A stretch of 64,000 bases of DNA, from positions 1-64,000 of the forward strand of contig JAFGVX010000027.1 of assembly GCA_016937775.1 (NCBI GenBank), given 5' to 3'. Of the stretch, positions 53,450 to 58,246 are shown piece by piece (within the stretch, counting starts at the first letter, position 1; each line of letters begins with the position of its first letter). The position numbers were made by a program, and so were the translations under genes. The notes beneath the pieces are model-generated. The model was given only the letters and a program-made list of their open reading frames with translations, was not told where the DNA came from and made no database searches. This stretch comes from Campylobacterales bacterium. Its GTDB lineage: Bacteria; Campylobacterota; Campylobacteria; Campylobacterales; Sulfurovaceae.

Positions 53450-53926
53450 CTATTTTCTTAACTTTATTCTTTGAATATGCGTAAGTGCAATTGCCATAGC
53501 ATCTGTGATATCAAGCGGTTTTATCTCTTTTTGAATTTTAAGCAACTTTTTCACCATAAAAGCCACTTGTTCTTTGGTCGCTTTTCCATGGCCGGTTACT
53601 GCTTTTTTTACTTGCAAAGGAGTATACTCATAAAAATATCCCACCTCTTGAAGTATCTTAAGCGAGAGCGCACCTCTAAATTGAGCTAATTTGATGACAC
53701 TCTTTGGATTGAATGCATAAAATATATCTTCAATGGCAACTTCGTCTATCTTTTGTGTGCCCAATATCACATCAAGCCCTTCTACAAGCTCGATTATCTG
53801 TTCTTGAAGGACGGGGGCTTTGAGTTTAAGCAAACCTGCCTCCACTAAAGAAATTTTCACACCATCAAATGAGAGTATGCAATACCCTAAATTACGACTC
53901 CCGGGATCAATTCCAAGTATATTCAT
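53450..53926 (-). CDS. ruvC: Crossover junction endodeoxyribonuclease RuvC
   Basis: [68 protein letters not shown]. Confidence 0.96.
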
Positions 53927-54021
53927 TCACACCTTTTTTCACATAGTGAACAAAATTGTTCAACTCTTTTTTATAGCCTTATATTAACTAAATTTTGATA
54001 AAATAATGAAAGTTATTCACA
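53923..54021. other. oriC: oriC1: DnaA-box cluster upstream of dnaA
   Basis: TCATTCACA 53923, TTTTTCACA 53935, AGTGAACAA (inverted) 53945, TTATTCACA 54013. Confidence 0.7.
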
Positions 54022-54051
54022 TTAAGTTTAAAAATTTACGGAGTTGGTGTT

Positions 54052-55380
54052 ATGAATATCGGAGAGAAAGTTTTAAATGAACTCAAAAGAGAGATTCCGG
54101 AAAATGAATATGAAAAATATATAAAAAAATTAAATTATGATACAAAAAGATCGAGAAGTAATCTCGCTCATTTTTATGCACCAAATCTCATCATAGCAAA
54201 ATGGGTCAATACAAAATACAAAAAAACACTAGAACACCTTTTCGAACTTCAAGGCGGTGTAAAACCCGAAGTACATATATCTATCTCTGAGTGTAATGAT
54301 ACTTCGCTCAAACCTGAAGTACCTAACGTAAAAACAGGAGATAAAAATCAACAAAAAAGCAGTTATCTCAACCCCTCTTTGATCTTTGACAGTTTCATTG
54401 TCGGCAGCTCAAATCAATTTGCTTATACGGCAGCTAAAAGTGTTGCCGATAAACCGGGACAGATATACAATCCGCTTTTTTTGTATGGTGGAGTAGGGCT
54501 TGGAAAAACACATCTACTTCAAGCTATTGGGAACCATCAAGTCGCTTTAGGAAAAAAGGTAATCTATACGACACTTGAAATGTTTATGAACTCTTTTATT
54601 TCTCATATCCAATCAAAAACTATGGATAGGTTTAGAGAAAAATTTCGTGAATGTGATCTTCTACTTATCGATGATATTCAATTTTTAAGTCGAAAAAATG
54701 AGACGCAAGAAGAGTTCTTCCATACTTTTAATGAGCTCTACAATGCAAAGAAACAAATTGTTATCACATCCGATCGCCCTCCAAATAAGATAGCAGGACT
54801 TGTTGATAGACTTAAAAGTAGATTTGAATGGGGACTCATGGCAGATATCCAACCTCCCGGACTTGAAACGAAAATAGAAATTATCAAGAAAAAATGCGAA
54901 CTAGACGGCATACGACTCAATAGTGATATCATTAATTATATTGCAACTAATATGGGAGATAATATTCGAGAGATAGAAGGAACAATTATAAAACTCAATG
55001 CACTCAGCTCTATGCTTAATCAAAAAATTACCCTTGATTTTGCTCAAAATGCCATTAAAGATCAAATACGAGAAAAAAGAGAAAATATCACCATTGATCA
55101 CATCGTAGAAGTTGTTTCAAAAGAGCTCAATATAAAACCTTCAGATATCAAATCCAAAAAGAGAACACAAGCAATTGCAAATGCAAGACGCATCGTGATT
55201 TATCTTGCAAGAAACCTTACGCCAAATTCCATGCCTCAAATTGCCGTATATTTCGGCATGAAAGACCATACAGCTATCAGCCATGCTATGAGAAAAATAA
55301 ATGAGATTATTGATAACAACGAAAATTTTAAAGTTACACTTGAAGAGTTATCAAATAAAATAAACACCAAAGAAAAATGA
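54052..55380 (+). CDS. dnaA: Chromosomal replication initiator protein DnaA
   Basis: NPLFLYGGVGLGKTHLLQAIGN, LLIDDIQFLSRKNETQEEFFHTFN, FGMKDHTAISHAMRKI. Confidence 0.98.
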   Translation: MNIGEKVLNELKREIPENEYEKYIKKLNYDTKRSRSNLAHFYAPNLIIAKWVNTKYKKTLEHLFELQGGVKPEVHISISECNDTSLKPEVPNVKTGDKNQQKSSYLNPSLIFDSFIVGSSNQFAYTAAKSVADKPGQIYNPLFLYGGVGLGKTHLLQAIGNHQVALGKKVIYTTLEMFMNSFISHIQSKTMDRFREKFRECDLLLIDDIQFLSRKNETQEEFFHTFNELYNAKKQIVITSDRPPNKIAGLVDRLKSRFEWGLMADIQPPGLETKIEIIKKKCELDGIRLNSDIINYIATNMGDNIREIEGTIIKLNALSSMLNQKITLDFAQNAIKDQIREKRENITIDHIVEVVSKELNIKPSDIKSKKRTQAIANARRIVIYLARNLTPNSMPQIAVYFGMKDHTAISHAMRKINEIIDNNENFKVTLEELSNKINTKEK

Positions 55381-55414
55381 AACAAAAAAAGATATAATTT
55401 TAAAAGTGAGTATA

Positions 55415-55530
55415 TGTGAATAGATATTTTTTAAATGTTGTACTAAAAATTCCCTTGAGAAAGGAGTTAAAAACTCTTTTCACATATTCATCAAATACTA
55501 CTAATATTACTACTCTTAATTTATATATAA
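55415..55530. other. oriC: oriC2: DnaA boxes, DnaA-trio-like run and AT-rich segment
   Basis: TGTGAATAG (inverted) 55415, TTTTCACAT 55477, TACTACTAATATTACTACT 55496..55514, then CTTAATTTATATATAA. Confidence 0.7.
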
Positions 55531-55540
55531 AGGAGAGAAG

Positions 55541-56608
55541 ATGAAGTTGAAAGTCCAAAAGCAAAGTATAGAATCTATACTAGTGAACTTGCAACCTTTC
55601 TTAGAAAAAAAAGATGCTAGTCAGATAACATCACACATACTGTTTGAGACACAAGGAGATATCTGTTCAATAAAAGCAACAGACCTTGAGATAGGATTAG
55701 AAATAAAGACTGATAACCTTTCAATTGAACAAAACGGTAGTTGTACTACTAATGGAAAAAAACTACTTGATATTGTAAGGATGCTTAAAGACGATGATAT
55801 TACTTTAGAGTTTTTAGATAATACACTTATTATTAAACAAAAACACTCTAAATTTAAACTTCCAACTTTTGATGTATCTTCTTATCCTAACTTTCCTACA
55901 ACTGATGATAAACCTCAAATTTCTTTGGATTCACTTGCACTTATACAAAGCTTCAAAAAAATCTCTCCGGCAATTGATACAAATAACCCAAAATTTGAAC
56001 TTAACGGCGCACTTTTAAATATTAAAAATAATTTTACAGATATCGTCGGTACCGATACAAGAAGATTAGCAATCGCAACAATAGAAAACAAAAGTGAAAA
56101 AGATCTTTCACTTATCATTCCTAAAAAAGCAATTATGGAAATACAAAAACTCTTCTTAGATAAAATAAATATCTATTATGATGAGGTAAATTTAATCATT
56201 CAAAATAACAACTTTTATTTTTATTCAAGACTCATAAATGGAAAATATCCTGATTATGATCGAATCATTCCAAAAACTACTAAACATACACTCATACTTC
56301 CAAAAAAAGACATGATTGATACAATTAGAATGATAACAACAATTTCTCAAGATATAAAAATGACAATACTTCCCGATGTGGTACTTTTTAATTCACTCAG
56401 TAGCGAAAATGTTGAAGCAAAAACAGAGATAGAGATAGATACAAATTTTAATGAAAAATTTGAGATAAATTTTAATAGTAGATATCTTCTTGATTTTATT
56501 ACACAAGTTGAAAAAAACGAATTTGAACTGCAATTTAATGAGGCAAATTTACCTTTTATTGCAAAAGATGATAATTTTATAACTATTATCATGCCGATTG
56601 TAATGTAA
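55541..56608 (+). CDS. dnaN: DNA polymerase III beta subunit
   Basis: MKLKVQKQSIESILVNLQPFLEKKDASQITSHILFE; follows dnaA; C-terminal FIAKDDNFITIIMPIVM. Confidence 0.97.
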   Translation: MKLKVQKQSIESILVNLQPFLEKKDASQITSHILFETQGDICSIKATDLEIGLEIKTDNLSIEQNGSCTTNGKKLLDIVRMLKDDDITLEFLDNTLIIKQKHSKFKLPTFDVSSYPNFPTTDDKPQISLDSLALIQSFKKISPAIDTNNPKFELNGALLNIKNNFTDIVGTDTRRLAIATIENKSEKDLSLIIPKKAIMEIQKLFLDKINIYYDEVNLIIQNNNFYFYSRLINGKYPDYDRIIPKTTKHTLILPKKDMIDTIRMITTISQDIKMTILPDVVLFNSLSSENVEAKTEIEIDTNFNEKFEINFNSRYLLDFITQVEKNEFELQFNEANLPFIAKDDNFITIIMPIVM

Positions 56609-56611
56609 GGT

Positions 56612-58246
56612 ATGAGTGTGTCATCAGAAAAAACAAAGTTTATATTTATTACCGGTGGAGTTTTAAGTTCTTTAGGTAAAGGAATTAGTGCAGCGAGTAT
56701 CGCAACTCTTTTAAAACATTCAGGTTTTGAGATTGGGATATTAAAACTTGATCCCTATATTAATGTTGATCCCGGTACTATGAGCCCACTTGAACATGGA
56801 GAGGTTTTTGTCACGAAAGACGGTGCTGAAACCGATTTGGATCTTGGACATTATGAACGATTTATAGATACCTCTTTGACAAAAAATAACAATTTTACTA
56901 CTGGACAAGTTTATAAAAGAGTCATTGAAAATGAGAGAAAAGGGAAATATCTTGGTAAAACGATCCAAGTCGTTCCCCACATTGTTAATGAGATTAAAGA
57001 GCGTATATTTTTAGCAGGCAAAAACAAAGATATACTCATTGTAGAACTTGGTGGAACAACCGGAGATATAGAAGGACTTCCTTTTTTAGAGACGATTCGA
57101 CAGATTAAGCATGAACTTGGCTCTGAGAGAGTCATGAATATTCATGTCACACTATTACCATTTATAAAAGTTGCCGGGGAATTGAAAACAAAGCCGACAC
57201 AACACTCCGTTCAAGAGCTTAGAAGAATTGGTATCTCGCCACATATGCTTATTCTTAGAGCTGAACAGCCGGTTCCAAAAGAGCTTAAAAGAAAAATTGC
57301 ATATAGTTGTGATGTCGATCAAGAGAGTGTTATTGACGCAATTGATGAAAAAACTATCTATAAAGTACCGTTGAATTTACTTTCTCAAAATATACTAAAA
57401 CAGATAGCAAAACAACTTAATTTAGGTAATATAAAACCAAATATGGATCAGTGGACAAATCTTGTAAGTAAGATTATTATGCCTTCACATGAAGTTAAGA
57501 TTGCTTTTGTTGGAAAGTATCTTGATCTTAAAGAGTCTTATAAATCACTCACTGAAGCACTCGTGCATGCAGGAGCCAATTTAGACAGTAGGGTTAATAT
57601 TAAATGGATTGATAGTGAAAAACTTGAACATGAGAGTGATTATGTAAAACATTTTAAAGACTGTGATGGTATTTTAGTTGCAGGAGGCTTTGGGCAAAGA
57701 GGTGTAGAGGGTAAAATAAGCGCCATTAAGTATGCAAGAGAAAATAAAATTCCTTTTTTAGGTATATGTCTTGGAATGCAGCTTGCTATCATTGAATTTG
57801 CAAGAAATGTTTTGGGGTTACAAGGAGTAAATTCTACAGAATTTGATGAGAATTGTGAAAATCCTATTATTTATCTTATTGATGAATTTATCGATTCAAG
57901 CGGTAATAAACAGATACGCACCACAAAATCTCCTTTGGGCGGCACTTTGAGACTTGGTGAATATAGATGTGAGACGAAAAAAGGCTCAAATTTGCAAAAA
58001 GCATACAATGAAGATGTTATTTATGAACGTCATCGTCATAGATATGAAGCCAATGCAAAGTACAGAGAAGCACTTGAAAAGAATGGGATGATCGTCACAG
58101 GGGAATCAAATGGACTTATAGAAGCTGTAGAAGTTGCCGATCATCCATGGTTTTTAGGCGTGCAATTTCACCCGGAATTTACCTCTCGCCTTCAAAATCC
58201 AAATCTTGCTATTCTTGCATTCATCAAAGCAAGCATGAAACTCTAA
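56612..58246 (+). CDS. pyrG: CTP synthase
   Basis: [75 protein letters not shown]. Confidence 0.98.

What the first reader, a model, noticed from the sequence alone, without database searches (positions are those of the whole stretch)
55415..55530. DnaA-trio-like run beside DnaA boxes in the dnaA-dnaN gap (oriC2/unwinding element)
The order is TTTTCACAT, then TACTACTAATATTACTACT, then an AT-rich tract. The complementary strand reads as 3'-GAT/AAT-like trinucleotides, matching the arrangement described for bacterial DnaA-trio unwinding elements. An inverted box (TGTGAATAG) lies upstream.
Basis: partly seen in the sequence, partly recalled or inferred. Interest (0 to 1): 0.62.

Follow-up and report, generated by a model that had tools for sequence, protein, structure and literature searches.

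The report
Ordinary replication origin unwinding element
This is the spot where a Sulfurovum-like bacterium most likely opens its chromosome to start copying it; the element is of a known kind, but comparing it with about 170 relatives shows an unexpectedly rigid spacing of its protein-binding sites that the papers I read do not describe.

Summary
It is the only run of six or more [ACT]TA triplets in 64 kb. GC skew and gene direction switch here, the ruvC-dnaA gap carries the oriC1 box cluster, HobA is present, and DnaA keeps most trio-contacting residues. The same anatomy occurs across Campylobacterota. DnaA-dependent unwinding of this gap has been shown in A. butzleri, W. succinogenes, S. 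denitrificans, H. pylori and C. jejuni, so this is a new member of a known kind (genus in Sulfurovaceae). Two comparative results look unreported. First, the inverted box sits 62-66 bp (SD 0.7) from the DUE-proximal box in 156 of 169 distinct gaps from all 12 families, although the linker is saturated and the 2016 study found no conserved box pattern. Second, many relatives (not this genus) carry a +1 register slip inside the trio array, never +2 in the strict count.

The parts
54052..55380 (+). dnaA (442 aa), the initiator
   Evidence: 8btg B. subtilis DnaA hit E 4.8e-107
55541..56608 (+). dnaN (355 aa)
   Evidence: position of dnaN in relatives
53450..53926 (-). ruvC, divergent neighbour of dnaA
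   Evidence: ruvC(-) upstream of dnaA in 157 loci
53923..54021 (.). oriC1: four core-TTCAC DnaA boxes (53923+, 53935+, 53945-, 54013+)
   Evidence: relatives average 4.1 core boxes in the 160 nt before dnaA against 0.33 per 160 nt in coding DNA
55405..55413 (-). degenerate outer inverted box (core GTGAG, complement CTCAC), 10 bp outside the inner one
   Evidence: a GTGAA core sits at this place in most relatives, inside the dnaA 3' end in short-gap families
55415..55423 (-). inverted DnaA box CTATTCACA; its core start is 63 bp upstream of the core of the DUE-proximal box
55476..55484 (+). DUE-proximal (R1-type) DnaA box CTTTTCACA, pointing at the trios
55484..55492 (+). weak twin box ATATTCATC, overlapping by 1 bp (head-to-tail)
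   Evidence: twin boxes overlapping by 1 bp are described in C. jejuni
55493..55497 (.). spacer AAATA; 13 nt from the end of the strong box to the first CTA; no GC-rich element
55498..55518 (-). DnaA-trio array, upper strand CTA CTA ATA TTA CTA CTC TTA; bound strand 3'-GAT GAT TAT AAT GAT GAG AAT-5'. The first five form the core; an ATA just before (55495-55497) is not conserved in the nearest relative
55519..55531 (.). AT-rich tract of the DUE
   Evidence: the 60 bp from 55486 is among the weakest 1.2% of the window by nearest-neighbour energy
55532..55540 (+). dnaN Shine-Dalgarno region GGAGAGAAG
   Evidence: sequence

Best explanation
The gap is the oriC2 half of a bipartite Campylobacterota chromosome origin. 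DnaA-ATP binds the strong box at 55476-55484 and, weakly, its head-to-tail twin. From there it extends as a filament onto the lower strand from 55498 on, one protomer per 3'-(G/A/T)AT-5' trinucleotide, and so melts the DNA there and into the AT-rich tract before dnaN. The inverted box at 55415-55423, six helical turns away on the same face, binds a second, outward-facing DnaA group that holds the complex and probably helps to bridge to the four boxes of oriC1 upstream of dnaA. Shown here: sequence, order, spacing, conservation, and conserved trio-contact residues in DnaA. Inferred from experiments in relatives: binding, unwinding and looping.
For: Array unique in the window and rare in shuffles. 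Twin boxes plus trio array present in nearly all of 113 distinct gaps, first trio mostly 12-13 nt after the strong box. In the nearest relative (95% DnaA identity) the twin boxes differ at 0 of 17 positions and the trios at 2 of 21 (neither a middle T of the first five), the linker at 12 of 52. GC skew -0.097 over the 8 kb left and +0.147 over the 8 kb right, cumulative minimum at 56374. DnaA has E176, N180, I183, I186, R195, K215 and E221 aligned with B. subtilis E183, N187, I190, I193, R202, K222 and E228, which contact or flank the captured bases or the DNA backbone. HobA present. P1-mapped oriC2 unwinding in three relatives, and H. pylori unwinding abolished by trio mutation.
Against: No experiment on this organism. 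The third trio (ATA) and the sixth (CTC) deviate from the best consensus. The weakest 60 bp duplex nearby is in the ruvC-dnaA gap (53979-54038), not in oriC2. Box-then-CTACTA occurs 7 times in the genome, so the short pattern alone is not specific. The contig is only 69.8 kb, so the skew minimum is local.
Confidence: 0.93

Rival explanations
1. The CTA-rich run is the -10 region of a dnaN promoter or leader, and its conservation reflects expression of dnaN, not unwinding.
For: A weak sigma-70-like pair TTCACA-17-TAATAT overlaps the boxes and trios, and the run lies just before the dnaN Shine-Dalgarno.
Against: Promoter matches in the region equal the shuffle mean (7 against 7.3). The conserved feature is a triplet array tied to the boxes, whereas the distance from box to dnaN ATG varies (54-111 nt).
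Confidence: 0.05
2. Melting starts in the ruvC-dnaA gap (oriC1), and oriC2 boxes only regulate dnaA or titrate DnaA.
For: oriC1 has more core boxes (4 against 2) and the weakest duplex nearby.
Against: In three relatives DnaA-dependent unwinding occurred only in oriC2. None of the high-scoring trio arrays listed for the window lies in oriC1.
Confidence: 0.03
3. Chance AT-rich triplet run with no function.
For: AT-rich DNA makes NTA runs fairly easily; 15 of 20,000 shuffles give a run of six.
Against: Conserved in class-wide relatives at near-fixed spacing from the boxes.
Confidence: 0.01

Closest known systems
Bipartite oriC of Arcobacter butzleri, Wolinella succinogenes and Sulfurimonas denitrificans (PMC5043019)
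   Same: ruvC-dnaA-dnaN location, oriC1 and oriC2 box clusters, core TTCAC boxes, DUE and trios in the dnaA-dnaN gap, outward-facing distal box
   Different: Here dnaN is followed by pyrG, not gyrB; the paper reports no conserved box pattern, while the comparison here finds a fixed 62-66 bp frame
Helicobacter pylori oriC2 DUE (PMC8235120)
   Same: Twin head-to-tail boxes next to trios, then an AT-rich tract; trios essential for unwinding
   Different: H. pylori has a GC-rich spacer and no outward-facing distal box; the window has no GC-rich spacer and has the inverted box
Campylobacter jejuni oriC (PMC6052347)
   Same: Twin boxes overlapping by 1 bp, no GC-rich spacer, DUE in the dnaA-dnaN gap
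   Different: C. jejuni trios are degenerate and its origin is called monopartite; the window has good trios and an oriC1 cluster
Basal unwinding system (BUS) of Bacillus subtilis (PMC8287927, PMC6669920, PMC10721633)
   Same: Tandem DnaA boxes, spacer, in-register DnaA-trios; DnaA contact residues largely conserved
   Different: Box sequence (TTCAC core), 1-bp-overlapping twins, no GC cluster

Membership tests
Basal unwinding system (DnaA-box, spacer, DnaA-trios) | DnaA box with at most 2 mismatches pointing at the trios | tested here: met
   CTTTTCACA, 1 mismatch to TTWTTCACA, core TTCAC
Basal unwinding system (DnaA-box, spacer, DnaA-trios) | Spacer of at most 16 nt (peak 10-13) from the better box to the first trio | tested here: met
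   13 nt; published peak 10-13
Basal unwinding system (DnaA-box, spacer, DnaA-trios) | At least three contiguous trinucleotides with middle A on the bound strand | tested here: met
   Seven from 55498 (first five NTA on the upper strand), 21 nt in register
Basal unwinding system (DnaA-box, spacer, DnaA-trios) | DnaA residues that capture trio bases | tested here: met
   Seven of nine listed positions identical to B. subtilis
Basal unwinding system (DnaA-box, spacer, DnaA-trios) | DnaA-dependent strand separation that needs the trios | not testable with these tools
   Needs P1 or KMnO4 assay
Campylobacterota bipartite oriC | Core-TTCAC box clusters on both sides of dnaA | tested here: met
   Four in oriC1, two in oriC2
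Campylobacterota bipartite oriC | ruvC-dnaA-dnaN gene order | tested here: met
   157 loci
Campylobacterota bipartite oriC | GC-skew switch at the locus | tested here: met
   Local switch on the contig only
Campylobacterota bipartite oriC | DnaA loops oriC1 to oriC2 | not testable with these tools
   Needs electron microscopy

The most novel reading that the evidence does not exclude
Campylobacterota oriC2 is built on a rigid DnaA-box frame: two outward-facing boxes 10 bp apart, then 62-66 bp (six helical turns), then twin boxes 8 bp apart, then about 13 nt, then trios. The frame is kept by selection although the linker sequence is saturated, and even where the outer box falls inside the dnaA reading frame. 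In several lineages (Sulfurovum above all) the trio array tolerates one extra nucleotide after the third trio but not two, which would mean that the DnaA-ssDNA filament can step over one base.
Probability: 0.7. Interest if true: 0.55.

Novelty: new member of a known kind. Interest (0 to 1): 0.33.

Why it matters
For this genome it gives a precise, testable origin. More broadly, the literature says box arrangement in this class is not conserved; a fixed six-turn frame would give a shared geometry to model the orisome on, and might explain why C. jejuni minichromosomes need boxes in the dnaA 3' end. The natural +1 slips offer a direct test of how strictly the DnaA filament counts in threes.

Tried and rejected
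Promoter reading: consensus matches no better than shuffles. Short pattern TTCAC-N-CTACTA as a genome-wide locator: 7 hits, not specific. Long frame pattern GTGAA-N57-61-TTCAC-N12-18-YTACT over 200 genomes: 96 with a hit, many of them at oriC2, but the reversed control also hits often, so it is only a partial locator. Literature searches for a described register slip or a fixed box spacing in this class found none, though supplementary figures could not be read, so prior description there is possible.

Full report
What is there. The window covers most of a 69.8 kb contig of a MAG (G000, 108 contigs, 89% complete) from a genus of Sulfurovaceae. The nearest genome has 95% DnaA identity, and named relatives are Sulfurovum and related records. 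Gene order is ruvC(-), dnaA(+), dnaN(+), pyrG(+). The 160-bp dnaA-dnaN gap contains, left to right: a degenerate inverted box (55405-55413), an inverted box CTATTCACA (55415-55423, minus), a linker, CTTTTCACA (55476-55484), an overlapping weak twin ATATTCATC (55484-55492), AAATA, CTA CTA ATA TTA CTA CTC TTA (55498-55518), ATTTATATATAAA and a Shine-Dalgarno.

Chance. In 20,000 dinucleotide shuffles of the gap the array score is reached 52 times, the run of six [ACT]TA triplets 15 times, and the box-plus-five-trios combination 5 times. The real 64 kb holds only this one run of six.

Origin context. GC skew is -0.097 over the 8 kb left and +0.147 over the 8 kb right, with the cumulative minimum 0.8 kb into dnaN. 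ruvC and several genes before it run leftward, dnaA onward rightward. The ruvC-dnaA gap holds four core-TTCAC boxes, the oriC1 position. HobA is encoded elsewhere in the genome. DnaA aligns nearly end to end with B. subtilis DnaA (8btg) and keeps seven of nine residues listed as touching or flanking the trio DNA in the cryo-EM structure (PMC10721633).

Conservation. dnaA was found in 199 of 200 Campylobacterota genomes, and about 200 dnaA loci were extracted. In 113 distinct gaps the twin cores sit at 8-bp spacing and the first CTA-type trio lies mostly 12 or 13 nt (sometimes 10 or 16) after the strong box. Against the nearest relative the twin boxes show 0 of 17 differences, the trios 2 of 21 and the linker 12 of 52.

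Known. In A. butzleri, W. succinogenes and S. denitrificans, DnaA unwinds only oriC2 in the dnaA-dnaN gap, trios are present, and the box core is TTCAC (PMC5043019). In H. pylori trio mutations abolish unwinding, and most studied relatives have trios beside the proximal box (PMC8235120). C. jejuni has 1-bp-overlapping twin boxes and a degenerate trio (PMC6052347). The general system is the BUS (PMC8287927). The window is therefore a new member of a known kind.

Beyond the known, 1: a rigid box frame. The inverted core GTGAA lies 62-66 bp upstream of the proximal TTCAC core in 156 of 169 distinct gaps (one more lies at 71; 63 and 64 dominate), against 1.4% in shuffles for 60-66 bp. It is found in all 12 families and 36 of 39 genus groups; the standard deviation is 0.7 bp, against 29 bp for dnaA stop to box and 7.8 bp for box to dnaN ATG. 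The linker itself is near saturation (median identity 34% against 28% expected), so the spacing is not just recent descent. A second inverted core lies 10 bp further out in most; in families with short gaps it lies inside the end of dnaA, which fits the C. jejuni finding that boxes in the dnaA 3' end are needed for minichromosomes. PMC5043019 notes the outward orientation but states that the box pattern is not conserved. The window fits with 63 bp; its outer box is degenerate (GTGAG).

Beyond the known, 2: a +1 slip in relatives. In Sulfurovum and other genera (9 genera in 3 families) the array reads CTA CTA CTA N NTA CTA. Counting strict patterns over all distinct gaps, 24 have no insertion, 54 have +1 and 0 have +2; a looser count gives 57 at +1 and one doubtful +2. 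The DnaA tree needs about 10-12 changes of this state. The window's genus is in register throughout. In B. subtilis a 1-bp deletion in the trios slows unwinding and a 3-bp deletion does not (PMC6669920), so the tolerated +1 is unexpected. Since the third trio base faces outward in the structure, one extra looped base is conceivable; this is inference.

Limits. All function is inferred from sequence and from experiments in relatives. The tree was a FastTree run, and near-identical genomes inflate raw counts, though distinct sequences and genus counts are given. Supplementary figures of the key papers could not be read, so the two comparative features may have been drawn there without comment.

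Noticed in passing
oriC2 of relatives; window 55405-55492: Fixed 62-66 bp frame between inverted and direct DnaA boxes in 156 of 169 distinct dnaA-dnaN gaps, with a second inverted box 10 bp further out.
   Followed up: yes
L041-L047, L049, L052-L055, L057, L095, L099, L108, L121 and most of L137-L189: DnaA-trio array with a conserved +1 register slip after the third trio (CTACTACTA-N-NTACTA); never +2 in the strict count.
   Followed up: partly
56612-58246 and G000:C43:8318-10621: dnaN is followed by pyrG (CTP synthase) in the window and in about 110 related loci; gyrB lies on another contig, unlike the ruvC-dnaA-dnaN-gyrB order called highly conserved.
   Followed up: partly
L105, L106 (one genus of family f3): These dnaA-dnaN gaps have twin boxes in place but no recognisable trio array.
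   Followed up: no
53979-54038: The weakest 60-bp duplex near dnaA is in the oriC1 gap, not in the oriC2 DUE.
   Followed up: no
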